NCBI GenBank assembly: GCA_028386065.3
Contig: JAKUCV010005653.1
Span: 112,672 to 176,671, forward strand
Reading direction: 5' to 3'
Source of the DNA: Turnera subulata
Taxonomy: Eukaryota > Streptophyta > Magnoliopsida > Malpighiales > Passifloraceae
DNA length: 64,000 nucleotides
Part shown: piece after piece, positions 10,247 through 64,000 of the stretch
How positions within the stretch are numbered: position 1 is the stretch's first letter
Layout of the letters: the number at the start of each line of letters is the position of its first letter
The notes under the pieces: generated by a model
What the model was told of the DNA's origin: nothing
Databases searched by the model: none
The model's input: only the letters and a program-made list of their open reading frames with translations
Made by a program: the position numbers and the translations under genes

Positions 10247-10530
10247 TGTTAGAACTCATGTCTCCTTGTCTCATTTCAGGGGTTTGATATTGACAAACCA
10301 AGCATGACTCAATTGATGACAACCTTTAAGCAAAAAGAAATCAATCAAAGAGCAAAGGTCTAAAGAGAAAAGAGCAAAAGAATTGAAGTAACAAGAAAGA
10401 AGAGTTAGGAACTCAAAATTATACAAAGGTTAAACACTCAATTCTTCTAAGACATTGGCTCAAAAAAAAATCAATTTTACTCATGCATTCAATAGCATCC
10501 TTTCAATCATGAAATGCGTTTTGAGCAATG

Positions 10531-11080
10531 AACATCGATGCTCTGATTTTAGACATCGATGTTCCTGCCTTCAAACAATCTTTCAAAATAGGCAGTAGCT
10601 CAGAACATCGATGTTGGCATCCCAAACATCGATGTTCTCATGACCGTTGCACTTGAAAAATATTTTGCAACAGCAAAACATCGATGTTCAAATTTGAGAT
10701 ATCGATGTTCCATCAATTGATGTCTTTAAATTGACTTTCGCTGAACCAAATGAACATCGATGTTCTTCAAGTAAACATCGATGTTCCCATGATGATGCTT
10801 TCAAAATGATTTCACAGAACCAAAAGAACATCGATGTTCTTCAAGTAAACATCGATGTTCCCATGATCATCAGCTTTCAAATGATTTTGCCGAACCAAAT
10901 GAACATCGATGTTTATTGAGTAAACATCGATGTTTTAGTGACCGTTGGACTCAATAATTCATATTTACTGGCAAAACATCGATGTTCCTTTGGTAAACAT
11001 CGATGTTCTCATGACCGTTGGTCCAAATAATTCAAGTTTACTGGCCAAACATCGATGTTCTAAGTTCAAACATCGATGTT
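10531..11080. promoter_or_regulatory. Array of 8 paired 12-bp palindromes (AACATCGATGTT)
   Basis: Sites start at 10531/10552, 10604/10625, 10677/10698, 10753/10774, 10827/10848, 10902/10923, 10975/10996 and 11048/11069. Every pair is exactly 21 bp start to start, and pairs repeat every 73-76 bp. Thirteen of 16 sites are perfect; the others are AACATCGATGCT, GACATCGATGTT and GATATCGATGTT, so the ATCGAT core never changes. The 9-bp spacers vary freely. Each site has one symmetrical CpG. The architecture implies a dimer-of-dimers or cooperative factor bound on one DNA face; the factor is unknown. Confidence 0.9.
10939..10949 (-). promoter_or_regulatory. MSA-type (G2/M) element in LTR
   Basis: The minus strand reads TCCAACGGTCA, a full match to the plant mitosis-specific activator consensus YCYAACGGYYA bound by MYB3R factors. 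It lies between two palindrome pairs. One-mismatch copies occur at 11012-11022 and near 10642. Confidence 0.55.
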
Positions 11081-11720
11081 GTACCGTTTTGAGCAGACAC
11101 CTTTTTCAACATCCCATGCTATTTTGTCTAAAGGTGTTTTGGATTGATTCCATAACGATCATACATGTTTTGAGACATATAAATAGAGGATTTACATTTC
11201 TGTTTAATAACAATCAACTCTATACATTTTAAGCATTCAATGGTCATACATACATTGCAATTTTTATGAGCCAATTTCCTTGAGAATTGAGAGTTGTCTT
11301 TATAGAGCTTATTTGTTACTCATATTCACTCTTGAGAGAGCTTTTGTTTGAGTGTTTTTAAAGTGTTGTTCATACACCTTAAGGGAGGATTGTTCCCTTG
11401 TAGCAACTCATAGGAAGAGTGTTTTCTTTCCTTGAGAGAAGTCATGAAGTGAGGTATCTTCAAGCAAGTAGAGTTTCGTGTGGCTCGAGCTCTAGGTTTG
11501 TATACGGTTTGTTAAGCACCCGGAAGCTTAACCTAGATAGTGAATTCTTCGAGAGAGTCTCTCGGAGGACTGGATTAGCAACACAAGTTGTGTGTGTGAA
11601 CCAGTATAAATTTTGGTGTGTCCTTATTCTTTCAATTCCGCATTTATTTCCTGCAAGTTTTTTAGTTTCGTCCGAAAAACGCTATTCACCCTCCTCTAGC
11701 GTAGGGCACCTGTTCTAGCA

Positions 11721-11735
11721 ATTGGTAGCAGAGCC
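11721..11735 (+). promoter_or_regulatory. Copia primer-binding site (initiator tRNA-Met type)
   Basis: ATTGGTAGCAGAGCC follows the LTR directly and differs by one base from the usual TGGTATCAGAGC start of plant copia primer-binding sites. Confidence 0.8.
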
Positions 11736-11775
11736 TAACTCTCTGAAAGACTTAACCGTTTGAGAGAAACTTTCC

Positions 11776-13612
11776 ATGGCTTCTTCAAGTAATTATGCAG
11801 GACTCTTCGAAGGACAATCAACCACTCGTCCACCGCTCTTTGATGGCACCAACTACAGCTACTAGAAAGAGAGGATGAGAATCTTCCTCCAAGCCAACAA
11901 CTATGCTCTTTGGCGAATCATGAAGATCGGAGAGTAAATTCCGACAAAGAAAGTTGGTGAAACCATAGTGACAAAGACGGAGGTGGAATATGACGCTGCA
12001 GACATTACGATGATTGAAAATAACGCCAAATCAATCAACATGCTCTATTGTGCAGTCAACCCCGATGAAGACCGGAAAATCTCTTGCTGCACAACTGCAA
12101 ATGAAATGTGAGATAAGCTGGAGGTCACCTACGAAGGAACCGATCAAGTTCGAGAGGCCAAAATCGACTCCCTCGCTGCAGATTACGAACTCTTTCGAAT
12201 GAAGGAGAACGAGAGAATAGAGGAGATGTTCGAACGACTTTCTAAAATCGTAATTAACCTTCATGCTCTCAAGAAGGTCTACTCCGACAAGGACTTGGTC
12301 AGAAAAGTCCTCAGATGCCTCACTCCCGAATGGCGTTCTAAAGCCGACGCAATCTATAAAAACATCGGGACATCGAACACAACCATTGACAGTCTTAGAG
12401 GTATTCTTCTAACCTATGAAACTACCATTCTTAAACCCTCTTGCAAAGAAGAAGAACATAGCTCTCAAAGCTTCCACCTCCAAGACGCAAGAGCTCACTA
12501 AATTGGACTCTAGCGATGACGATCAAGAACTCGGACTTGTCACCCGTAAAATACCCAAATTCATGAAGAAAGAATTTGAAAGGAAAGGAAGGAAGACGTC
12601 TGGTCCACCAAAGTGCTATGGATGTGGAGAGGTTGGGCACATCAAGCCTAAGTGCCCTAAGGCAAAGGAGGAAAAAGAAAAGAAGCCCTACAAGAAGCAA
12701 AGGGCATACATCTCTTTGGGAGGCGATTCCGGCGATGAATCATCCGATAGCGATGAAGAAGAAACGGCCAACCTATGTCTCATGGCACGAGAGGAAGAAC
12801 CGGAAGAGGTAAGTACTTCTCACTCAAGCGAAGATTATACTTTTGAAGAATTGCAAGATGCATTTNGTCTCATGGCACGAGAGGAAGAACCGGAAGAGGT
12901 AAGTACTTCTCACTCAAGCGAAGATTATACTTTTGAAGAATTGCAAGATGCATTTAATGAGCTTTATGGTAAATACATTTCGGCATCTAGAACTAATAAG
13001 GGCTTAAAGAAACAACTTGCAACTCTAGAAAATGATATGGAGAAAGTGTCAAGTGAAAATGAAAAACTTAAAGAGGAAAATAAGTTTTACGGAAAGAGGA
13101 GTGCTAATAAACCGGAAAGTCCAATTAAGGAATGCTCATCATGTAAGTCATTAAAGGAACAAGTTGAAGAACTTGAAACAAAAATTAGGAAGTGTTCATC
13201 ATGTGAGACATTAAAAGAGCAAGTTAATGAACTTGAAACAACACTAAAGAAATTTAACACCCCTCAAAAGAACTTGAATTCTCTCTTAGGTAATTTGCAA
13301 TCAACTAAACATGGAGTAGGTTTCAAGAATGAACCTAAGAAGAAGAAAGTTGAAACAAAACCTAGGAAACCTATGTTTCAACCTAAGGAAAACAAGGTTA
13401 GTAAAATGCACAAACATAGGCAATATAGTAACTATTATCAACCTAGAAAGATGCACAATCCAAATGTTATTTGTCATTATTGCAATAGAATAGGACATAT
13501 TGCTCCCGTTTGCTTCACAAGGCGTAGGCATTGGGCACAAGATGAAGCTCATTACCATTATGTCTCTAACACTCAAGGACCCAAGAAGTTTTGGGTACCA
13601 AAAACCCATTGA
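11776..13612 (+). pseudogene. Copia gag (UBN2-like, CCHC zinc knuckle), broken
   Basis: The ATG at 11776 opens a copia gag: an N-terminal LFDGTNYSYW-type motif, a UBN2-like helical region (LYCAVNPD, then EMFERLSKIVNNLHALKK in the better copy), and a CCHC knuckle CYGCGEVGHIKPKCP encoded near 12616. A long lysine/glutamate-rich coiled coil follows, with a second knuckle-like CHYCNRIGHIAPVCF near 13470. It is inactivated by TAG at 11863, TAA at 11935, TGA at 12109 and a frameshift near 12445. The stop at 11863 is a Trp codon in element 2, so it arose after the copies split. An assembly gap with a duplicated flank lies inside (12777-12955). The coiled coil could drive particle assembly; that is inference. 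Confidence 0.85.
12777..12955 (+). repeat. 89-bp exact duplication around a single N (assembly join)
   Basis: Positions 12777-12865 and 12867-12955 are identical, separated by one N at 12866. Element 2 has this segment once. Exact identity on both sides of a single N points to two overlapping contigs placed end to end rather than a biological repeat. Confidence 0.85.
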
Positions 13613-14129: not shown

Positions 14130-14813
14130 TTAACGATTGGGTATAGCAGTGATTGAGAAATTGTAAGGGACATTAGCAATATTGACCCTAATACTATCAT
14201 TCCAAGAGAACCACATTCCGCCCGAATTGTTCTGACCATGAAGTTCGAACCGGTTTGCTGGAGGAAAACGAAGCGGGAAGACACCGTGATTATCTCCAGG
14301 CTGCCACAAGGTCTTTGTGAGCAGAACCATGTTGGGCTTGTACTGGTTCTTTAGATCTCTTAAAGTTCGTGTGAAATCTTGGGAGCGCCTAGTGATCCCT
14401 CTGCAGTTCCAAACCAGAAGGCGAGCTTTTGGCCAAGTGGGTGGTAAGCTAGTTGTCTGCGGAACGCTCTGAGCAGTCATTGAAATTTGGTAATAGCTGC
14501 CCTCATTCAGAGTCTGGCAAGAAGGCTCCAGCCTGAACTCCTGAAGTCTGTCAGAGTTGAAGAACATGATTGAATTAGCCGAGCCGTAGAAGGAAGCTCG
14601 CAGGGCACTTTGACGCTCCAGGAAGATTGTCTCCTCCATGGGTGTGACAAAGAACCAAGACGAGTAGAGCTCGTCAACAAAGACCAAACGAGGCATCCTC
14701 CCAAGCTCGTTCGGCAGTTCCTCTTGTTGCTCATTTATCAGGCTATAGGCTAACCGATTCCTTCTTCCTAAGGAGGCTCCCTCAACAAAGAAGACAGATG
14801 ATGGAGCAGGCAT
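14130..14813 (-). CDS. Antisense ORF 1 (227 aa) with a truncated LINE-type endonuclease start
   Basis: This ORF is open for 227 codons against the direction of the element, and its counterpart in element 2 (56063-56746) has the same length. Residues 1-125 resemble nothing I recognise. From about residue 130 it reads ARLLVWNCRGITR, then PNMVLLTKTLW, the opening strands of the APE-like endonuclease of plant LINEs, but it stops before the catalytic His region, so nuclease activity is not expected. A TATA-like box (CTATAAAAGG) lies on the same strand at 14913-14904, about 90 bp upstream, and is conserved in element 2. It is probably a captured host or LINE chimera. Whether it is translated is unknown. 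Confidence 0.55.
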   Translation of the reverse strand: MPAPSSVFFVEGASLGRRNRLAYSLINEQQEELPNELGRMPRLVFVDELYSSWFFVTPMEETIFLERQSALRASFYGSANSIMFFNSDRLQEFRLEPSCQTLNEGSYYQISMTAQSVPQTTSLPPTWPKARLLVWNCRGITRRSQDFTRTLRDLKNQYKPNMVLLTKTLWQPGDNHGVFPLRFPPANRFELHGQNNSGGMWFSWNDSIRVNIANVPYNFSITAIPNR

Positions 14814-14903
14814 TTTTGTCTTGTTGTGGTTTGTGTATCTCTCTCTCTCTCTGAATTGTATTTTTCTTTAAATGCTTTTGATTATTTACTAACCATTGCT
14901 TTA

Positions 14904-14913
14904 CCTTTTATAG
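14904..14913 (-). promoter_or_regulatory. TATA-like box of antisense ORF 1
   Basis: The minus strand reads CTATAAAAGG. The same ten bases occur at the same place in element 2 (56847-56838), about 90 bp before the antisense ATG; a CT/GA-rich tract lies between box and ATG in both. Confidence 0.5.
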
Positions 14914-15470: not shown

Positions 15471-15863
15471 TCATAAAATATTACAATAGAAGCAATCTAT
15501 GAAGTCATTTGCATGTTTGCGGACATTCTCAACCTGGGAGGAAAGTCCCATACAAGCCATCTCGATCTGCATCACAGCAGAGCTGATCTTCTTCAGGGCT
15601 AAGTTTAGATGCCCAAGTGTTTGTAATGGTGTATTACTGTGAGCTATCCCTTTGCCCTTCGGATGGTCAGTATCTTTGGTGACCAGCTTCTTTTGACGCT
15701 TGCGAGATATGGCCGTGTCTTCCAAATGACCAGGGACATTTCTCCGCTTGCGGCATTTCTTCTTCTTTTCCTCAACATCGGAACCACCAAAGAGAGGTGC
15801 ACCAAAAGTATAACTTAACTCCTCCGAATCAGAGGTAGTTCTAGTCCTTAGTGGTGAGTCCAT
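15471..15863 (-). CDS. Antisense ORF 2 (130 aa), basic, probably nuclear; frameshifted end
   Basis: The protein starts MDSPLRTRTTSDSEELSY, then has an acidic patch and a strongly basic run KKKKCRKRRN near residues 33-42 that resembles a nuclear localisation signal, and ends in a helix-prone region (LNLALKKISSAVMQIEMA). In element 2 the same ORF (57804-57421) ends VRKHVKELEKQMTS; here about 17 bp are missing and the last residues are out of frame. A TATA box lies 35 bp upstream in both copies. I do not recognise a family. A DNA-binding or chromatin role is only a guess from its charge. Confidence 0.5.
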   Translation of the reverse strand: MDSPLRTRTTSDSEELSYTFGAPLFGGSDVEEKKKKCRKRRNVPGHLEDTAISRKRQKKLVTKDTDHPKGKGIAHSNTPLQTLGHLNLALKKISSAVMQIEMACMGLSSQVENVRKHANDFIDCFYCNIL

Positions 15864-15897: not shown

Positions 15898-15905
15898 TAT
15901 TTATA
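15898..15905 (-). promoter_or_regulatory. TATA box of antisense ORF 2
   Basis: TATAAATA on the minus strand, 35 bp before the ATG at 15863. It is conserved in element 2 at 57846-57839. The spacing allows only a very short leader. Confidence 0.5.
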
Positions 15906-16198: not shown

Positions 16199-16653
16199 AA
16201 CATCGATGTTGCTCAACGGAACATCGATGTTCCTAATGTACAAACCTGGACCCGAGGCTAAAAAACATCGATGTTGAGGAGCTAACATCGATGTTGAGTG
16301 GAGTTCAGCTCGTACCATTCCCAACCAGTAGCTTTAAACATCAATGTTCCATCACAAAACATCGATGTTCAGTAAGTATTATTCTTCCCAGTAGTTTTAA
16401 ACATCGATGCTTCCAGGTAAGACATCGATGTTCTGTCATTTTAGATCACAATTTTTCATCCAGTAGTTTTAAACATCGATGTTCTCATATTACAACATCG
16501 ATGTTGTCTCGATTGGCGGCATTTCAGCTTGTGTCCAGAGGCTTCACAACATCGATGTTGCACTTATGAACATCGATGTTTAGCCCTCATTTTTCAAAAA
16601 ATTATAGCCGTTGGGATTCAAACATCGATGTCTTCAATCAGAACATCGATGTT
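16199..16653. promoter_or_regulatory. Internal array of 7 palindrome pairs upstream of the 3' ORF
   Basis: Sites start at 16199/16220, 16264/16284, 16337/16358, 16400/16421, 16472/16494, 16548/16569 and 16621/16642. Five pairs are spaced 21 bp, one 20 and one 22; pairs recur every 63-76 bp. Ten of 14 sites are perfect AACATCGATGTT. The array lies between antisense ORF 2 and the sense 3' ORF, 85 bp before a TATA box, copying the LTR promoter layout. Confidence 0.85.
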
Positions 16654-16697
16654 TAGGCGTTAAAATTTCAAAAATATAGCTGTTTCTAGCCGTTGGA
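16605..16697 (-). promoter_or_regulatory. Two MSA-type elements in the internal promoter
   Basis: The minus strand reads CCCAACGGCTA (16615-16605) and TCCAACGGCTA (16697-16687). Both fully match YCYAACGGYYA, the G2/M MSA consensus, and both lie just upstream of the TATA box at 16738. Confidence 0.5.
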
Positions 16698-16737: not shown

Positions 16738-16745
16738 TATATAAG
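16738..16745 (+). promoter_or_regulatory. TATA box of the 3' ORF
   Basis: TATATAAG, 96 bp before the ATG at 16841 and 85 bp after the last palindrome. Confidence 0.55.
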
Positions 16746-16840: not shown

Positions 16841-18102
16841 ATGGCAGGTGAGAGGAAATCTTCCAAGGGCAAATCTCCTGCTAAGGAGAGAACATCAAAG
16901 CAAAGAGGAGGCTCTTCAAGCTCAGCTCCTCAATTTACAGTGGAAGGCACCTCAATTTGGTTCTCTACCAGAGCCGAACTCCATAACTTTCTGTCTCTCT
17001 TCTCCAAGCGCTCAATTGCGTCTCCACGGTATCTTCCGGTGGATTACCCGAAGGAGAAGAACTACACGCAGCTTGAAGCCAATCTTCGAGCATCGGGATT
17101 GTGGGAATTCGTGACTAATAGGGGCTGGCAATATAGTGCGGAATTCGCCGAGCATTCTACTCAACTCTCCGACGAGATGGTGACACCTTGTCCGCTAGTG
17201 TCAATGGAGTATCTATTACCATGACATTGGAGGAATTCGGGGTGCTTGCTGGCTTGCCTTTTTAGGGAGACAATATTGCATCCTACGGAGGTGATCATTG
17301 GGCCACCATCCATGAACCACCCTTCCTGAATGAGCTTGGCTTCACAACCCTTGTCCGTCACAAATCCGGGAGGCCAACCATCCATTCCATTAACCCGGAG
17401 TATCGAGTTCTATTCTACCTTCTCACCCGGGTCATCAAGCCAAGAGACAGAAATCACACCGTCTTATCCGTTGAAGATGTGAAAGTCCTACATGCCATCA
17501 TCCACCATGCACCAATCAATTGGGCACGATTTGTGCTCATGCACATGTCGGAATATGCATCCGCATACACCGACCATCCATTGCCCTATCTATTCTTGGT
17601 CTTGAATATTTTATTGAATGCAGGTGTTGATGCTCGGCAAGGCACAGAGGTTCCTCACACAAAAATATGGGCGATAAATGATGCTACTTTCCGCACCGAA
17701 AAATCTGTGGAAGAACCAAGGCCCGGCCAAACTTCCGAGCAAGCTCCAGGGACTGCCCAAGCAGAAAGCTCCTGTGCAGCCCCTTCTCAACGCCGAACCT
17801 CCGGAGTCACTCTTGAGTCCATTGCTGACTCCATCCACGGCCTTTAATTAAGCATGACAAGCATGAGCCGAGCAATTGAGAGGATTGACACGGAAGTGCA
17901 AAGAAATGGCCACTCTCTTCGGTCTTACTTTTCCCGTGTAAATTACGATCCTCCACCATATCACACCACACTTCATGGCTACAATTTTGAAGAAGAAGGT
18001 GATAATGATGATGAGGACTTCACTCCAATGGATGTTGAGGATGGTGAAGAAGGAGCTAATGAAGAAGAAGAGGATGATGATGATGACAATGATGGGAACT
18101 AA
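16841..18102 (+). pseudogene. Sense 3' ORF: putative plant transposon protein (PF20167-like), broken
   Basis: The ATG at 16841 starts a basic, serine-rich head (MAGERKSSKGKSPAKERTSK). It leads into a helical domain with FWFSTRAELHNF-like and SGLWEFVTNRGW segments, then TLEEFGVLAGLPF, VEDVKVLHAIIHHAPINW and LPYLFLVLNILL. This order suits the plant transposon domain often carried by LTR retroelements, but the family call is from memory of its style, not from a search. A frameshift near 17180 and stops at 17262 and 17845 break it. The tail (to 18102) is very acidic (EEEEDDDDDNDGN). Element 2 has lost nearly all of this ORF. Confidence 0.6.
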
Positions 18103-18339: not shown

Positions 18340-18359
18340 ATTATCAAAAAGGGGAAAAT
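18340..18359 (+). promoter_or_regulatory. Polypurine tract of element 1
   Basis: A purine run containing AAAAAGGGGAAAA directly precedes the TG of the 3' LTR. A second AAAAGGGGGAAGA tract lies at about 18197. Confidence 0.75.
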
Positions 18360-19833
18360 TGTTAGAAATCATGTCTCCTTGTCTCATTTCAGGGTTTTGA
18401 TATTGACAAACCAAGCATGACTCAATTAATGACAACCTTGAAGCAAAAAGAAATCAATCAAAGAGCAAAGGTCTAAAGAGAAAAGAGCACAAGAATTAAA
18501 GTAACAAGAAAGAAGAGTTAGGAACTCAAAATTGTACAAAGGTTAAACACTCAATTCTTCTAAGACATTGGCTCAAAACAAAATCAATTTTACTCATGCA
18601 TTCAATAGCATCCTTTCAATCATGAAATGCGTTTTGAGCAATGAACATCGATGCTCTGATTTTAGACATCGATGTTCCTGCCTTCAAACAATCTTTCAAA
18701 ACAGGCAGTAGCTCAGAACATCGATGTTGGCATCCCAAACATCGATGTTCTCATGACCGTTGCACTTGAAAAATATTTTGCAACAGCAAAACATCGATGT
18801 TCAAATTTGAGACATCGATGTTCCATCAATTGATGTCTTTAAATTGATTTTCGCTGAACCAAATGAACATCGATGTTCTTCAAGTAAACATCGATGTTCC
18901 CATGATGATGCTTTCAAAATGATTTCACAGAACCAAATGAACATCGATGTTCTTCATGTAAACATCGATGTTCCCATGATCATTAGCTTTAAAATGATTT
19001 TGCTGAACCAAATGAACATCGATGTTCATTGAGTAAACATCGATGTTCTAGTGACCGTTGGACTCAATAATTCATATTTACAGGCAAAACATCGATGTTC
19101 CTTTGGTAAACATCGATGTTCTCTTGACCGTTGGTCCAAATAATTCAAGTTTACTGGCCAAACATCGATGTTCTAAGTTTAAACATCGATGTTGTACCGT
19201 TTTGAGCAGACACCTTTTTCAACATCCCAAGCTATTTTGTCTAAAGGAGTTTTGGATTGATTCCATAACGATCATACATGTTTTGAGACATATAAATAGA
19301 GGATTTACATCTTTATTTAATAACAATCAACTCTCTACATTTTAGGCATTCAATTGTCATACATATGTTGCAATTTTTATGAGCCAATTTCCTTGAGAAT
19401 TGAGAGTTGCCTTTATAAAGCTTATTTGTTACTCATATTCACTCTTGAGAGAGTTTTTGTTTGAGTGTTTTTAAAGTGTTGTTCATACACCTTAAGGGAG
19501 GATTGTTCCCTTGTAGCAACTCATAGGAAGAGTGTTTTCTTTCCTTGAGAGAAGTCTTGAAGTGAGGTATCTTCAAGCAAGTGGAGTTTCGTGTGACTCG
19601 AGCTCTAGGTTTGTATACGGTTTGTTAAGCACCCGGAAGCTTAACCTAGATAGTGAAATCTTGGAGAGAGTCTCTCGGAGGACTGGATTAGCCACACAAG
19701 TTGTGTGTGTGAACCAGTATAAATTTTGGTGTGTCCTTATTCTTTCAATTCCGCATTTATTTCTTGCAAGTTTTTTAGTTTCGTCCGAAAAACGCTATTC
19801 ACCCCCCTCTAGCGTAGGGCACCTGTTCTAACA
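18360..19833 (+). repeat. 3' LTR of element 1
   Basis: Same length (1474 bp) as the 5' LTR, with scattered substitutions and no indels. The eight palindrome pairs lie at 18644, 18717, 18790, 18866, 18940, 19015, 19088 and 19161, and the TATA box at 19291-19298. It ends TCTAACA at 19833. Confidence 0.9.
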
Positions 19834-20371
19834 AAAAAAAATTTTAATGCCCAAATTTGTTTTCTTAAATGCATTTTGACCCTAAAGAGAGTGATTGCGC
19901 TATTAGAGAAAATGTGATTGATTACAATTAGTAAAGTGTTTTGAGAAAATTAAGTCTTTTGTTACAGAGATATAGAAGTTTGTTTATGTGAAGATTGAGC
20001 CAATTCTAAAAGAAGACCTAGGTTGACCTTGGGGATCCCCATTTAGATGAACTACAAGAGCTTTGAACCCACTAACAGGGGGTATGTAGGCAGTCTCAAG
20101 CGGATGAGGCGTAAACTCAAATGTTTGCTTTTCTGCATTGCATCTCATTATAACATACACACTTTGCAAAATATATATGTCATGCTTTTTTGTTAATTTG
20201 CTTGTAACATGGGGTATATGCATACTATCCGGCTATGAAATGTACGCATTGACCTTGGCATCCAATACTGTGGGCGTCGTCCCAGGAAAGATGGTGGCTA
20301 GTAATAAACAAATCCTTGGGTCCTCCTCTTGGTTACGAGACAAATGCTTTATCTAGAGTCATTTGTGGGTT
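19834..20371 (+). mobile_element. Outer Tat/Ogre-like LTR, middle part
   Basis: Continues the LTR interrupted at 10246. It carries the motif AGCTTTGAACCC...GGGGGTATGTAGG near 20063-20096, the plus-strand counterpart of the U5 motif seen on the minus strand in the LTRs near 7.67 and 61.63 kb. It is interrupted at 20371 by a solo LTR. Confidence 0.5.
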
Positions 20372-27720: not shown

Positions 27721-27872
27721 GACCAAAATGACACAAAAAATCGTAACTACCTAACCTACTTTTGGAAACTTCGTGGAACTGGAACAATTATTTTTTTGGT
27801 CTTTACAAGTTCCAGTTCCACGAGGTTTCCAAAAGTAGGTTGGGTAGTTACGATTTTTGTGTTATTTTGGTC
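27721..27872. repeat. Foldback hairpin (65-bp arms, 23-bp loop)
   Basis: The left arm (27721-27785) starts GACCAAAATGACAC; the right arm (27809-27872) is its reverse complement with about four differences, ending GTTATTTTGGTC. Loop 27786-27808. The near-perfect arms suggest a young foldback MITE or an inverted duplication that could yield a long hairpin RNA. I do not see a clear target duplication. Confidence 0.85.
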
Positions 27873-52379: not shown

Positions 52380-52384
52380 TAAGC

Positions 52385-53743
52385 TGTTAGAAATAGTGTT
52401 TTGCTAATGCCTCCTTGTCTCATACAGGTTTTGATATTGACAAACCGGACATTGATTCAAAATGATGACAAACCCGAGGCAAAAAGAAATCACTCCCGAA
52501 GCAAAAAGAAATGACTCAAAGAGAAGAAATATAAAGTGAAGAAGAGCACAAGAATTGAAGCACAAGAAGATTTAGGAACCTAATTGTAAAAGGTTAACAC
52601 TCAAATTCTTCTAAGATGTTAGCTCAAACATAATCAATTTTTTCTCATGCATAACATTCTTTTTATCAATCATAAAAATAGTTTTTGAGCACTAAACATC
52701 GATGTTGTGCTTCTAAACATCGATGTTCCTGCCTTCTAAAAGGTTTATCAAAAGCGGCAGTAGCTCAAAACATCGATGTTGGCATCCCAAACATCGATGT
52801 TCTCCTGTCCGATTGCATTTCAAGATGTTTTGCAAAAACACTGTTCAAACATCGATGTTCACTTTTCAAACATCGATATTCTACTGTTCAAACATCGATG
52901 TTCAAAGTTTAAACATCGATGTTCTACTGTTCATTGTTTTAAATTGTTTTGGCAGTGCTCTAAAACATCGATGTTCAAGTTTGAAACATCGATGTTTTAG
53001 TGACCGTTGGACCAAAACATCGATGTTTTAGTGACCGTTGGCCCAATAATTCATATTTACTGGCCAAACATCGATGTTCTAGTGCTAAACATCGATGTTG
53101 TGCCGTTTTAAGCAGAAACCTTTTGCATCTTTCTATGTTGTTTTGTCTAAAGGTGTTTTGGAATGATTCCCCAACGGTCATATAAGTTTTTAGACATATA
53201 AATAGAGCATTTACACCTCTGTTTATTAACAATCAACTCTCCATACATTTATCATTCATTGATACACATTCATTCAAGTTTTTTATGAGCTAATATCCTT
53301 CATTGAGATTTGAGAGAGTTGCCTTATAGTGCTTATCTTGTTACTCAACATCCACTCTTTGAGAGAGTTTCTATTTTGAGTGTTGTGAGTGTTGTTATAC
53401 ACTTTAAGAGAGGATTGTTCCCTTGTAGTAACTCATAGGAAGAGTGTTTTCTTTCTTGAGAGAAGTCTTGAAGTGAGGTATCTTCAAGCAGGTAGAGTTT
53501 CGTGTGACTTGAGCTCTAGTTTTGTATATGGTTTGTTAAGCACCCGGAAGCTTAACCTAGATAGTGAAATCTTCGAGAGAGTCTCTCGGAGGACTGGATT
53601 AGCCACACAAGTTGTGTGTGTGAACCAGTATAAATCTTGGTGTGTCCTTATTCTTTCAATTCCGCATTTATTTCCTGCAAGTTTTTTAATTTGTCCGAAA
53701 AATGCTATTCACCCCCCTCTAGCGTAGGGCACCTGTTCTAACA
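52385..53743 (+). repeat. 5' LTR of element 2 (13 palindrome sites)
   Basis: TGTTAG...CTAACA. Palindrome sites start at 52695, 52716, 52769, 52790, 52848, 52869, 52891, 52912, 52964, 52985, 53016, 53067 and 53088; 12 of 13 are perfect. TATA box at 53197-53204. MSA matches: TCCAACGGTCA on the minus strand at 53011-53001 and CCCAACGGTCA on the plus strand at 53170-53180. Confidence 0.9.
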
Positions 53744-56062: not shown

Positions 56063-56746
56063 TTAACGATTGGGTACAGCAGTGACTGAGAAACTATTAG
56101 AGACATTAGCAATATTGACCCTAATACTATCATTCCAAGAGAACCACATTCCGCCTGAATTGTTCTGACCATGAAGTTCGAACCGGTTTGCTGAAGGAAA
56201 ACGAAGCGGGATGACACCGTGATTATCTCCAGGCTGCCACAAGGTCTCTGTGAGCAGAACCATGTTGGGCTTGTACTGGTTCTTCAGATCTCTTAAGGTT
56301 CGTGTGAACTCATTAGAGCGCCTAGTGATTCCTCTGCAGTTCCAAACCAGAAGGCGAGCTTTTGGCCAAGTGGGTGGTAAGCCAGTTGTCCGCGGAACGC
56401 TCTGAGCAGTCATTGAAATTCGGTAATAGCTGCCCTCATTCAGAGTCTGGCAAGAAGGCTCTAGCCTGAACTCTTGAAGTCTGTCAGAGATGAAGAACAT
56501 GATGGAATTGGCCAAGCCGTAAAAGGAAGCTCGCAGGGTACTTTGGTGCTCCAGGAAGATTGTCTCCTCCATGGGTGTGACAAAGAACCGGGACGAGTAG
56601 AGCTCGTCAACGAAGACCAAACGAGGCATCCTCCCAAGCTCGTTTGGGAGTTCCTCTTGTTGCTCATTTATCAAGCTATAGGCTAACCGATTCCTTCTTC
56701 CTAAGGAGGCTCCCTCAACAAAGAAGACAGATGATGGAGCAGGCAT
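56063..56746 (-). CDS. Antisense ORF 1 of element 2 (227 aa)
   Basis: Open and the same length as its counterpart in element 1, with about 20 amino-acid differences and no indel or stop, in a region where the sense gag of both copies has broken several times. It ends in the same truncated LINE endonuclease start (ARLLVWNCRGITR, PNMVLLTETLW). The TATA-like box CTATAAAAGG is at 56847-56838. Confidence 0.55.
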   Translation of the reverse strand: MPAPSSVFFVEGASLGRRNRLAYSLINEQQEELPNELGRMPRLVFVDELYSSRFFVTPMEETIFLEHQSTLRASFYGLANSIMFFISDRLQEFRLEPSCQTLNEGSYYRISMTAQSVPRTTGLPPTWPKARLLVWNCRGITRRSNEFTRTLRDLKNQYKPNMVLLTETLWQPGDNHGVIPLRFPSANRFELHGQNNSGGMWFSWNDSIRVNIANVSNSFSVTAVPNR

Positions 56747-57420
56747 TTTTGTCTTGCTGAGATTTGAGTATCTCTCTCTCTCTCTCTGAATCGTATTTTC
56801 TTTAAATGCTTTTGATTATTTACTAACCATTGCTTTGCCTTTTATAGAAATACGATTATCTATTTTTCAAAGTCTAGACCCTACCTATTTTTCGATAAAC
56901 GGTAAAGCAAACCTCTCTCTTCACAAAACTACAAATTGTATATGCTCCTCAAGGCTCCTCTTTTTGAAAATCTTTACCACTGTCTACATACCCTTGTCAT
57001 GTTGCATGTTTTCGGGCAACAAACACTTGTGTTTTCTAGCTCACTTCTCACATGCATTACTTTTTCACTCTGGCTATCTTGGCTCTTCAATAAAGGGATA
57101 TGAATCCCAAAAGTCGCTTTTTTTGCTCATGTGGGGTTTATGAACAAGTGGTTGCTAATTATTGTCATTAATTCACCGTGCGTTATGACGTCATTTTTTT
57201 TTGGCTTACACAAATAATGAACATCGTTTTATTAAGGAATATTTGATTTCTATTATTGCTAGAAATTCGTGATTTCACCACTTATATTCTTTTTGGTTAC
57301 TAATAACAGGCTTGATTTTATTGGATCTTATATTCCTACCATTTATGTTTAAAAACAAGCTTGATTAAGAAAAAGGAACTACTTATTTATTCATTCATAA
57401 AATATTACAATAGAAGCAAT

Positions 57421-58098: not shown

Positions 58099-58199
58099 AA
58101 CATCGATGTTCAGAAACCAAACATCGATGTTTGGTGTAGTGCATGCTCAAAACTTTGACAGAATGCATACAACACTGATGTTCCGTCAACATTGATGTT
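58099..58199. promoter_or_regulatory. Remnant internal palindrome array of element 2
   Basis: One perfect pair (58099/58120, 21 bp apart) and two decayed sites (58171 AACACTGATGTT, 58188 AACATTGATGTT). It marks the place of the internal promoter found complete in element 1; the ORF it would serve has been deleted. Confidence 0.7.
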
Positions 58200-58436: not shown

Positions 58437-59858
58437 TATTAGAAATAGTGTTTTGCTAATGCCTCCTTGTCTCATACAGGTTTTGATATTGACAAACCGG
58501 ACATTGATTCAAAATGACGACAAACCCGAGGCAAAAAGAAATCACTCCCGAAGCAAAAAGAAATGACTCAAAGAGAAGAAATGCAAAGTGAAGAAGAGCA
58601 CAAGAATTGAAGCACAAGAAGATTTAGGAACCTAATTGTAAAAGGTTAACACTCAAATTCTTCTAAGATGTTAGCTCAAACATAATCAATTTTTTCTCAT
58701 GCATAGCATTCTTTTTATCAATCATAAAAATGGTTTTTGAGCACTAAACATCGATGTTGTGTTTCTAAACATCGATGTTCTTGCCTTCTAAAAGGTTTAC
58801 CAAAAGCGGCAGTAGCTCAAAACGTCGATGTTGGCATCCCAAACATCGATGTTCTCCTGTCCGATTGCATTTCAAGATGTTTTGCAGAAACACTGTTCAA
58901 ACATCGATGTTCACTTTTCAAACATCGATGTTCTACTGTTCAAACATCGATGTTCAAAGTTTAAACATCGATGTTCACTTTTCAAACATCGATGTTCTAC
59001 TGTTCAAACATTGATGTTCAAAGTTTAAACATCGATGTTCTACTGTTCATTATTTTAAATTGTTTTGGCAGTGCTCCAAAACATCGATGTTTTAGTGACC
59101 GTTGGACCAAAACATCGATGTTTAAGTTTAGAACATCGATGTTTTAGTGACCGTTGGCCCAATAATTCATATTTACTGGCCAAACATCGATGTTCTAGTG
59201 CTAAACATCGATGTTGTGCCGTTTTAAGCAGAAACCTTTTGCATCTTTCTATGTTGTTTTGTCTAAAGGTGTTTTGGAATGATTCCCCAACGGTCATATA
59301 AGTTTTTAGACATATAAATAGAGTATTTACACCTCTGTTTATTAACAATCAACTCTCCATACATTTATCATTCATTGATACACATTCATTCAAGTTTTTT
59401 ATGAGCTAATATCCTTCATTGAGATTTGAGAGAGTTGCCTTATAGTGCTTATCTTGTTACTCATCATCCACTCTTTGAGGGAGTTTCTATTTTGAGTGTT
59501 GTGAGTGTTGTTATACACTTTAAGGGAGGATTGTTCCCTTGTAGTAACTCGTAGGAAGAGTGTTTTCTTTCTTGAGAGAAGTCTTGAAGTGAGGTATCTT
59601 CAAGCAGGTAGAGTTTCGTGTGACTTGAGCTCTAGTTTTGTATACGGTTTGTTAAGCACCCGGAAGCTTAACCTAGATAGTGAAATCTTCGAGAGAGTCT
59701 CTCGGAGGACTGGATTAGCCACACAAGTTGTGTGTGTGAACCAGTATAAATCTTGGTGTGTCCTTATTCTTTCAATTCCGCATTTATTTCCTGCAAGTTT
59801 TTTAATTTGTCCGAAAATCGCTATTCACCCCCCCTAGCGTAGGGCACCTGTTCTAACA
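58437..59858 (+). repeat. 3' LTR of element 2 (16 palindrome sites)
   Basis: Preceded by a purine tract (AAAAAGGGGGAAA). It begins TATTAG instead of TGTTAG, a terminal mutation. Sites start at 58747, 58768, 58821, 58842, 58900, 58921, 58943, 58964, 58985, 59007, 59028, 59080, 59111, 59132, 59183 and 59204. Seven consecutive sites (58900-59028) sit 21 or 22 bp apart without a break. TATA box 59313-59320. Confidence 0.9.
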
Positions 59859-59863
59859 TAAGC

Positions 59864-62941: not shown

Positions 62942-64000
62942 CGAGCAGCTATGCTGGTTTGAAAATATGGGGCAGTTATGCCACCATGGCACAATCCAAA
63001 TCACTCGAAATGACGGGGCAGCTATGTCCCAAAATGCATAATCATCTCAAAATTTCGGGCAGCTACGCCCTCAGGAGGTGTTCAATTTTAAAACTTCAGG
63101 CAGCTGTGCCCAATGATGCACGATTATCTTAAAAACTCGGGGGAAAAGTAGCTACTAAAGCATAAACTGCACTTTTTTCCTTCCCCGCGAGTGTAGCATG
63201 ATGAGCAGTTATGCCCCTAATACATAATCGATTGAAAGAAAGTCGGGGAGCTATGCCCCTTGTCTGCAATCGATTCAAAACATATGGGCAACTATGCCCT
63301 TGAAGTGACCAATTTCAAAAACTTGGGCAGCTATACCCCCAATTTGAAATCAACTTCAAGAATTTGGGCAGCTATGCCCTCAACGTAGTCTAACTCAAAA
63401 ACTTGGACAGCTATGTCCCTGACACAATTAGCTTCTTAAATTCGTGCAGTAATGCCCTTGGTTTGAAATCATCTTTAAAAGTTTAAGCAGATATGCCCAT
63501 GATACAATCAACTTAAAAAATTCGGGCAGCTATGCCCTGAGGAGGAAATCGATTTCAAAAATTTGGGCAGCTATGCCTTTAACATGATCAAACTAAAAAC
63601 TCAGGCGGCTATGCTCTTCGCGCAATCAAATTCAAAAAACTGGGGCATTTATGCCCCTTATGCAATCAAATTAAAACTCGGACAGCTATGTCCCTGATGC
63701 ATTCAACTTTAAAAAACTATGGCGGCTATGCCCTCCATGTAATCAAATGAAAAACTTAGGCAGCCATGCCCTTCATCTGTTCAAAAACTCGGGCAGCTAT
63801 GCCCCTGATGTATTTAAATTAAAAATTCAGGCAACTATGCCCTTCTTAATGATACAGGCAGCTATGCACAAGGCGTAATCAACTTCGAAAATGCGGGCAG
63901 CTATGCCCCTCATGTTCAAAGATCCGGGCAGCTATGCCCTTTGTTTAACTTTCAAAAATTAGGACATCTATGCCCCTTATTCAAGTTCAAAAAACCAGGG
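62942..64000 (+). repeat. Degenerate tandem array, about 25 units of roughly 40 bp, core GGGCAGCTATGCCC
   Basis: Each unit has a 14-bp core with 5-bp inverted arms (GGGCA/TGCCC around GCTA), followed by an A-rich spacer of 15-30 bp. Unit length ranges from about 27 to 63 bp and spacers are poorly conserved while the core persists. Two units have compensating changes in both arms (GGACA/TGTCC near 63403 and 63677). The array runs off the window, so its length is unknown. Confidence 0.85.

What the first reader, a model, noticed from the sequence alone, without database searches (positions are those of the whole stretch)
10531..11080. Helically phased pairs of a 12-bp palindrome in LTR U3
AACATCGATGTT occurs 16 times in 550 bp of the LTR as eight pairs. 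All eight pairs are exactly 21 bp start to start (two turns of B-DNA) and pairs recur every 73-76 bp (about seven turns). The ATCGAT core is invariant while 9-bp spacers differ. A random 12-mer would be expected far less than once in the window; about 79 sites are present, 64 perfect. This implies selection for a cooperative factor binding one DNA face. I know of no described plant element with this layout.
Basis: partly seen in the sequence, partly recalled or inferred. Interest (0 to 1): 0.88.

Follow-up and report, generated by a model that had tools for sequence, protein, structure and literature searches.

The report
Paired palindrome arrays in retrotransposon promoters
A plant jumping gene carries rows of the same 12-letter palindrome, mostly in pairs 21 letters apart, in front of its predicted sense-strand promoters, next to sequences resembling known cell-division control signals; they look like landing sites for a DNA-binding protein that has not been identified.

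Summary
In detail: 16 copies of AACATCGATGTT (two mismatches or fewer) form eight pairs, all 21 bp apart, in the U3 of a 1,474-bp LTR. All 79 such sites of the window lie in two related, apparently non-autonomous copia-type elements. A further array (INT1, 16199-16653) lies inside element 1, upstream of a TATA-like box and an extra sense ORF. INT1 linkers show no detectable similarity to LTR linkers and spacers match at chance level (0.258), yet the palindrome is shared (0.944). That is the best evidence that the 12-mer is maintained as such. A second motif shares these promoters: all 8 exact window matches to the plant MSA (MYB3R, G2/M) consensus lie there (0.18 expected). Best reading: arrays of dimer-type binding sites at the element's sense promoters, possibly gated to dividing cells. 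Selection for helical spacing is not shown: spacers change length no less often per base than linkers (P=0.65), and exceptions exist. Arrays of the same palindrome with 21- or 42-bp steps also occur in bacterial contigs. The binding factor is unknown and no other plant copies could be fetched. New variant of a known kind.

The parts
10247..11720 (+). 5' LTR of element 1 (E1), TGTTAGAA...TTCTAGCA, 1,474 bp; 5' flank AAAAT
   Evidence: self-BLAST with 18354-19834 at 97.1%; boundaries read by eye
10531..11080 (+). LTR array: 16 palindromes in eight 21-bp pairs, inter-pair steps 52,52,55,53,54,52,52
10939..10949 (+). MSA-consensus match (TGACCGTTGGA) in an array linker
11178..11185 (+). TATA-like box of the 5' LTR (TATAAATA), 97 bp after the array
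11722..11740 (+). primer-binding-site-like stretch TTGGTAGCAGAGCCTAACT just inside the 5' LTR (copia / initiator-Met type by recall)
   Evidence: read
12112..13612 (+). gag pieces: Retrotran_gag_2 (PF14223, 8.4e-12) and an ORF with zinc knuckle (PF00098, below cutoff) and coiled coil; not one open frame in E1
14130..14867 (-). antisense ORF B (245 codons stop to stop); dN/dS 0.34 between E1 and E2; TATA-like box at 14912(-)
15471..15863 (-). antisense ORF A from its first ATG, with a strongly basic stretch; dN/dS 0.52 (P=0.09); TATA-like box at 15905(-)
16199..16653 (+). internal array INT1: 14 palindromes in seven pairs (21,20,21,21,22,21,21), linkers not detectably related to the LTR arrays
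16605..16615 (+). MSA-consensus match TAGCCGTTGGG in INT1
16687..16697 (+). MSA-consensus match TAGCCGTTGGA between INT1 and its TATA-like box
16738..16745 (+). TATA-like box of the internal sense promoter (TATATAAG), 84 bp after INT1
16841..18102 (+). extra sense ORF, interrupted, in three open pieces; the middle piece 17266-17847 matches Transposase_32 (PF20167, 3.6e-8, 33.9 bits, below the curated cutoff of 45)
18360..19833 (+). 3' LTR of E1 with 16 sites (18644-19193) and a TATA-like box at 19291
52385..53743 (+). 5' LTR of element 2 (E2), 13 sites; perfect target-site duplication TAAGC at 52380-52384 and 59859-59863
53001..53180 (.). two MSA-consensus matches of the E2 5' LTR (53001 +, 53170 -), the second just upstream of the TATA-like box at 53197
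58099..58199 (+). INT2: reduced internal array of E2 (one intact 21-bp pair, two decayed sites 17 bp apart); the region matching E1's extra sense ORF is missing from E2
58437..59858 (+). 3' LTR of E2, 16 sites, including a run of seven with steps 21,22,21,21,22,21 and one single site

Best explanation
The palindrome AACATCGATGTT is a binding site for a dimeric sequence-specific protein. The retrotransposon has multiplied it into promoter-proximal arrays upstream of each sense promoter it appears to carry: the U3 of both LTRs and, in E1, an internal promoter in front of an extra gene. Arrays grow by tandem duplication; the linkers then drift, while element copies that keep many intact sites leave more descendants. 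The neighbouring MSA-like CCAACGG sites suggest that the same promoters also read the G2/M programme through R1R2R3-MYB (MYB3R) proteins, so transcription would peak in dividing cells. Shown: the sites, their conservation against linkers, their position before TATA-like boxes, the second array with unrelated linkers, the MSA enrichment. Inferred: that these are promoters, that a protein binds, that it is a dimer and an activator, and the cell-cycle timing. Not established: that the 21-bp spacing itself is selected, and whether the factor is of the host or made by the element.
For: 79 of 79 sites lie inside two elements. Over the 30 sites of the 5' LTR of E1 and INT1, information content is 1.53-2.00 bits at the 12 positions and 0.65 or less outside. 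Motif identity 0.979 and 0.943 versus spacer 0.393 and linker 0.531 in the LTR array. INT1 linkers versus LTR linkers score at shuffle level (17 versus mean 17.4; 16 versus 16.5; also with bridged motifs, 18 versus 19.3 and 19 versus 18.4), while the positive control LTR1-LTR2 scores 64 versus 17; motif 0.944 versus spacer 0.258. E1-E2 LTR differences in motifs, array non-motif and rest: 5/165, 37/229, 91/892 (5' pair); 8/192, 54/252, 83/888 (3' pair); 4/165, 41/230, 84/889 (E1 3' with E2 5'). Five of five sense TATA-like boxes found lie 84-97 bp after the last site. MSA consensus: 8 of 8 window matches are in these promoters, 0.18 expected; 1, 2 and 2 matches in three motif-masked arrays, shuffled mean 0.004 or less.
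Against: No binding or expression data, and no plant copies beyond the two elements. Spacer length is not more constrained per base than linker length. After insertion, motifs in E2 change as fast as the rest of the LTR outside the array (2/156 versus 13/951), as expected for dead copies, but in E1 they look depleted (1/192 versus 42/1281, P=0.035), which selection in the active lineage alone does not predict. The E1-E2 LTR alignments carry about 60 gaps. The short core CCGTT is not enriched (51 versus 47), and 4 of the 16 CCGTTGG matches lie outside the elements. CHR elements, which often accompany MSA in DREAM targets (recalled), are not consistently enriched: 4, 2 and 0. The antisense TATA-like box at 15905 has no array close by (nearest site 294 bp away).
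Confidence: 0.6

Rival explanations
1. The arrays are targets of a protein made by the element itself (an anti-silencing or trans-activating factor), in the way VANC proteins bind short motifs arrayed in VANDAL transposons. Candidates are the extra sense ORF with a Transposase_32-like piece or the antisense ORFs A and B to the left of INT1.
For: Same short motif at several promoters of one element family and nowhere else in the window. Antisense ORF B is under protein-level constraint (dN/dS 0.34, P=0.0013). ORF A has a strongly basic stretch. E2, which lacks the region matching the extra sense ORF, has only a remnant INT2 in which 2 of 4 sites have decayed, although its LTR arrays are largely intact. 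VANC precedent: motif arrays in tandem repeats in noncoding regions (PMC5735166, passages; PMC10398659, passages).
Against: The sense ORF is interrupted in E1 and missing in E2, yet E2's LTR arrays are largely intact. No DNA-binding domain was recognised in the pieces scanned. The fold of the Transposase_32 piece was unusable (mean pLDDT 40.2). No homologues at E 0.001 in the protein collection for ORF B or the Transposase_32 piece; that collection may hold few plant proteins.
Confidence: 0.22
2. No selection: palindromes are kept by hairpin-mediated template switching during replication or reverse transcription. Each pair can form a 12-bp stem with a 9-nt loop, and such arrays expand by slippage.
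For: The two pairs folded as RNA give full 12-bp stems (-13.1 and -16.4 kcal/mol). The arrays are tandem repeats. Arrays of the same palindrome with a 21- or 42-bp step recur in bacterial contigs. 5'/3' LTR differences avoid motifs in E1 (1/192) and, pooled over both elements, relative to the array linkers (3/348 versus 22/597, P=0.010).
Against: Arm correction would preserve pairing, not the same sequence in every pair; 0 of 13 variant checks (12 distinct bases, some shared by descent; 20 pairs examined) show a compensating partner. Single sites and an odd run of seven persist. E2 motifs mutate at the ordinary rate after insertion (2/156 versus 13/951). It explains neither the arrays' place before TATA-like boxes nor the MSA co-occurrence.
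Confidence: 0.12
3. An ordinary minisatellite in the LTR with no function; the palindrome is simply the slowest-changing part.
For: TRF calls parts of the region 73-74-bp tandem repeats at 82-85% match; site number differs between the two LTRs of E2, 13 versus 16.
Against: Conservation stops sharply at the edges of the 12-mer. The same 12-mer is in INT1 with unrelated linkers.
Confidence: 0.06

Closest known systems
VANC target arrays of VANDAL transposons (Arabidopsis; PMC5735166 and PMC10398659, passages seen)
   Same: Short motif at high density in noncoding parts of one transposon family, arranged in fast-changing tandem repeats
   Different: VANDALs are DNA transposons (recalled) and the 9-base VANC21 motif YAGTATTAY is not a palindrome. 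Here the motif is a 12-bp palindrome, mostly in pairs, in an LTR element; no VANC relative was recognised
Repeated promoter motifs in the U3 of plant copia elements (Tto1, Tnt1, ONSEN; details recalled, the elements are named in passages of PMC10794571, where the 13-bp Tto1 element appears only as a reference title)
   Same: Short cis-elements upstream of the LTR TATA box
   Different: As I recall them these are stress- or wound-response elements in few copies; the palindrome, the pairs and the second array at an internal promoter are not part of what I know of them
MSA elements of G2/M genes bound by MYB3R (PMC10905365, passages)
   Same: AACGG-core sites near the transcription start, repeated and in either orientation
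   Different: Here they sit in a retrotransposon and are outnumbered by ATCGAT palindromes, which are not an MSA feature as far as I know
Plant LTR elements with additional sense and antisense ORFs (Grande, RIRE2, Retand; PMC7264820, passages; a sunflower Athila ORF partly similar to PF20167, PMC11728184, passages)
   Same: Extra ORFs before the 3' LTR in both orientations, with a promoter of its own for the antisense gene in Grande
   Different: A palindrome array shared by the LTR and an internal promoter is not mentioned in the passages seen

Membership tests
LTR retrotransposon, copia type, non-autonomous | paired LTRs, target-site duplication, primer binding site, gag | tested here: met
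   LTR pairs; TAAGC duplication for E2, 4 of 5 bases for E1 (read); PF14223 gag 5.2e-21 in E2 and 8.4e-12 in E1
LTR retrotransposon, copia type, non-autonomous | no pol domains (non-autonomous) | tested here: inconclusive
   No polymerase or integrase domain in the 10 ORF pieces of the elements given to Pfam (8, 2 of 4); not every frame was scanned
VANC-type anti-silencing target | short motif arrayed at high density in noncoding parts of one family only | tested here: met
   79 of 79 sites in the two elements of this window; the rest of the genome could not be searched
VANC-type anti-silencing target | element encodes a VANC protein that binds the motif and causes loss of methylation | not testable with these tools
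   No such family among the Pfam hits of the pieces scanned (whether Pfam has a VANC model was not checked); binding and methylation need experiments
MSA / MYB3R-controlled promoter | exact YCYAACGGYYA sites (11-mer consensus recalled) near the TATA, more than chance | tested here: met
   8 matches, all in the promoters, 0.18 expected; three arrays tested separately
MSA / MYB3R-controlled promoter | G2/M-specific expression dependent on MYB3R | not testable with these tools
   needs synchronised cells
Helically phased cooperative binding array | pair spacing constrained more than neighbouring sequence | tested here: not met
   2 length changes in 135 bp of spacer versus 8 in 510 bp of linker, P=0.65; few events, so low power. 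Inter-pair steps fit 10.5 bp but the copies are not independent
RNA hairpin element | compensating changes in paired arms | tested here: not met
   0 of 13 variant checks compensated

The most novel reading that the evidence does not exclude
A retrotransposon that times all its sense transcription to mitosis: one composite code, paired ATCGAT palindromes plus MSA sites, is present at both the LTR and an internal promoter. The palindromes would be read cooperatively by a factor not yet described in plants, perhaps made by the element itself.
Probability: 0.2. Interest if true: 0.78.

Novelty: new variant of a known kind. Interest (0 to 1): 0.55.

Why it matters
If the arrays are binding sites, this element offers a ready test of how plant transposons evolve dense, uniform enhancers, and a short DNA bait (12 or 33 bp) with which to fish for a factor whose site matches no plant motif that I recall. 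The MSA co-occurrence makes a specific prediction, cell-cycle-gated transcription, that can be tested in synchronised tobacco cells. If a protein of the element binds, it would be a VANC-like self-recognition system in a class I element.

Tried and rejected
RNA hairpin or dimer signal: pairs can fold (two folded), but no variant is compensated and single sites persist. 21-nt small-RNA phasing: inter-pair steps of 51-55 bp break a 21-nt register. Coding repeat: open frames over the arrays reach 110 codons at most in the stop-to-stop lists. Glucocorticoid response element: the DNA of GR-DBD crystals 1GLU and 1R4O contains AACATCGATGTT (PMC10297449, one table passage); plants lack nuclear receptors (recalled), so a coincidence. 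CHR elements: not consistent.

Relatives: gag of E2 against viral contigs, 23 stretches matched a pattern, none a relative; an LTR stretch against viral contigs, none; protein searches of antisense ORF B and the Transposase_32 piece, none (the third search was not used). The pattern scan of prokaryote genomes hit 11 contigs, all with bacterial titles. The single viral hit is not special: three control palindromes gave 0, 1 and 0 loci. No control scan of prokaryote genomes was possible (cap), so I cannot say whether this palindrome is over-represented there. Structure of the Transposase_32 piece: unusable. In one search the script crashed before the shuffle control for INT1; searches cover that question.

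Literature: 10 of 10 searches used, of a library of open-licence papers only. The 12-mer itself is in 2 papers, a receptor review and a protein-DNA modelling paper (the second seen as listing only). CATCGATG with motif is in 350 papers, of which 20 were listed and none read. ATCGAT with palindromic, retrotransposon and tandem repeat: 0 papers. Mitosis-specific activator with LTR retrotransposon: 0 papers. ATCGAT with binding, Arabidopsis and promoter: 4 papers, listing only, none about a plant binding factor by title. No paper was read whole; the papers opened were seen as passages.

Rows left out: the pooled phase test used LTR1_5, INT1 and LTR2_3 and left out LTR1_3 and LTR2_5 as near-copies. 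The compensation check used 20 pairs and left out all LTR1_3 pairs but one, LTR2 pairs without variants, and INT2. The INT1 unit and spacer comparison used the five 21-bp pairs of seven. The TATA scan looked for three 8-base words only.

Full report
What is there. The window holds two related LTR elements. E1 has LTRs at 10247-11720 and 18360-19833 (97.1% identical over the BLAST match; 43 differences in 1,473 aligned columns). E2 has LTRs at 52385-53743 and 58437-59858, flanked by a perfect TAAGC duplication; E1's flanks agree at 4 of 5 bases (read). Both carry a copia-type gag (PF14223). None of the 10 ORF pieces of the elements given to Pfam contains a polymerase or integrase. E1 also has an extra sense ORF, interrupted, in three open pieces, the middle one matching Transposase_32 weakly (3.6e-8, below the curated cutoff). 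Both elements have two antisense ORFs with TATA-like boxes of their own. Between E1 and E2 antisense ORF B has dN/dS 0.34 (22 of 558 versus 18 of 162 sites, P=0.0013). ORF A (0.52, P=0.09) and the gag C-terminal piece (0.47, P=0.08) lean the same way without significance, and a short gag N-terminal piece does not (1.32, 67 codons).

The palindrome. AACATCGATGTT with two mismatches or fewer occurs 79 times against 3.05 expected, 64 of them perfect, all within the two elements. It occurs in the four LTR arrays (16, 16, 13 and 16 sites), in an internal array INT1 of E1 (14 sites) and in a remnant INT2 of E2 (4 sites). They are, however, copies of a 73-74-bp tandem unit, so eight equal spacings are not eight observations.

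Is the palindrome maintained? In the 5' LTR of E1 motif identity between units is 0.979 and 0.943, spacers 0.393, linkers 0.531 (shuffled linkers 0.410; shuffled spacers 0.271). Over the 30 sites of that LTR and INT1 conservation is 1.53-2.00 bits at the 12 positions and at most 0.65 outside. With palindromes masked, INT1 and LTR linkers align no better than shuffles, whereas the two LTR families align far better. Between LTR1 and INT1 the first motif of a pair is 0.944 identical and the spacer 0.258. INT1 and INT2 align through their left flank into the first pair; both palindromes are intact in both and the spacers differ. I take this as good evidence that the 12-mer is kept for its sequence in the active lineage. 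A weak counter-hint of common ancestry of INT1 and LTR arrays remains: the 8-mer CAGTAGCT lies upstream of a pair in both, and both have a modal inter-pair step near 52.

A cautionary test. Differences between the two LTRs of one copy should be neutral. In E2 they are, against the LTR outside the array (2/156 in motifs, 13/951 in the rest; array linkers 10/239). In E1 motifs are depleted (1/192 versus 42/1281, P=0.035). Pooled against the rest of the LTR the depletion is not significant (3/348 versus 43/1874, P=0.10); pooled against the array linkers it is (3/348 versus 22/597, P=0.010). A direct comparison of within-copy with E1-E2 differences, motif against array linker, shows no contrast (3 and 22 versus 5 and 37, P=1.0). 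Small numbers, array misalignment, or LTR differences older than the insertion could account for this; it is also the result that favours a mutational explanation.

Is the spacing selected? The inter-pair steps (52,52,55,53,54,52,52; 44,53,42,51,54,52; 53,58,52,31,51) fit a 10.5-bp repeat better than steps jittered by up to 8 bp (LTR1 P=0.0001, INT1 P=0.0003, LTR2 P=0.024). Within pairs, 2 of 15 spacers changed length (by one base each), the same per-base rate as linkers (8 in 510 bp; P=0.65).

Where the arrays sit. Sense TATA-like boxes at 11178, 16738, 19291, 53197 and 59313, the five found, lie 97, 84, 97, 97 and 97 bp downstream of the last palindrome. INT1 lies between antisense ORF A and the extra sense ORF, so it could serve both; its nearest site is 294 bp from the antisense box at 15905.

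A second motif. CCGTTGG-containing sites recur in the linkers: 16 in the window against 2.19 expected, 12 of them in the elements. The full MSA consensus (YCYAACGGYYA, recalled; the AACGG/CCGTT core is in PMC10905365, passages) has 8 exact matches in the window, 0.18 expected, all in these promoters: one in each E1 LTR, two in INT1 and the stretch after it, two in each E2 LTR. LTR copies repeat one another, so the separate instances are fewer than eight. The bare CCGTT core is not enriched in the window (51 versus 47), so it is the extended site that stands out. Motif-masked arrays taken one at a time give 1, 2 and 2 matches against 0.004 or fewer expected. CHR elements are not consistent (4, 2, 0).

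Prokaryote arrays. A scan of prokaryote species genomes for two palindromes 3-33 bp apart hit 11 contigs. In 9 of 11 the sites form arrays with a 21- or 41/42-bp step, in 2 of 11 a 15-bp step. Units and flanks differ between groups. Open frames overlap most of these arrays and are repetitive, so coding is not excluded for them. They look like separate satellites or iteron arrays. They suggest that palindromes with a two-turn step arise repeatedly, which weakens the uniqueness of the plant layout; but the scan was made with this palindrome alone and no control palindrome could be scanned there. Of a review of prokaryote satellites (PMC6749651) I saw passages only and did not look in it for this palindrome.

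Conclusion. The arrays are most likely dimer-type binding sites multiplied in the element's sense promoters (0.6), for a factor that may be of the host or of the element. Membership in the VANC-type system is not claimed: motif density is met, the protein is not found. Mitotic gating by MYB3R is a testable inference from motif matches alone.

Noticed in passing
L002 4698-4898; L004 4593-4814; L006 2678-2899; L007 6653-6811; L008 7537-7716; L009 3046-3309; L010 1-243; L011 4408-4916; L012 5809-5987: Arrays of the same palindrome with 21- or 41/42-bp steps in bacterial contigs (four of one Kiruna bin, four of Tannerella or Tannerellaceae, one Spirochaetia); L011 also holds a variant core AACTTTGAAGTT. 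L003 and L005 (actinobacteria) have a 15-bp step.
   Followed up: partly
window 14130-14867 (-) and 56063-56815 (-): Antisense ORF inside the retrotransposon, dN/dS 0.34 between the two copies, its C-terminal part weakly like an endonuclease/exonuclease/phosphatase domain (PF03372, E=0.023, below cutoff).
   Followed up: partly
window 58099-58199: In E2, which lacks the region matching the extra sense ORF, the internal array has only four sites, two of them decayed, while the LTR arrays are largely intact.
   Followed up: partly
window 58891-59049: Run of seven palindromes (steps 21,22,21,21,22,21) in the 3' LTR of E2 against four in its 5' LTR: the array seems to have changed length around or after insertion.
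   Followed up: no
window 63310-63993: Another set of tandem repeats (periods of about 40 and 80 bp) built on GGGCAGCTATGCCC, whose arms GGGCA/TGCCC are complementary.
   Followed up: no
window 12776-12955: 90-bp tandem duplication in the gag ORF of E1 (98% match); not listed by TRF at the matching place of E2.
   Followed up: no
window 27721-27872: A stretch that matches its own reverse complement at 82.6% (alignment length 155), perhaps a small inverted-repeat element.
   Followed up: no
PDB entries 1GLU and 1R4O (PMC10297449 table): The 12-mer is contained in the glucocorticoid-receptor crystal DNA with a 4-nt spacer; taken as coincidence.
   Followed up: yes
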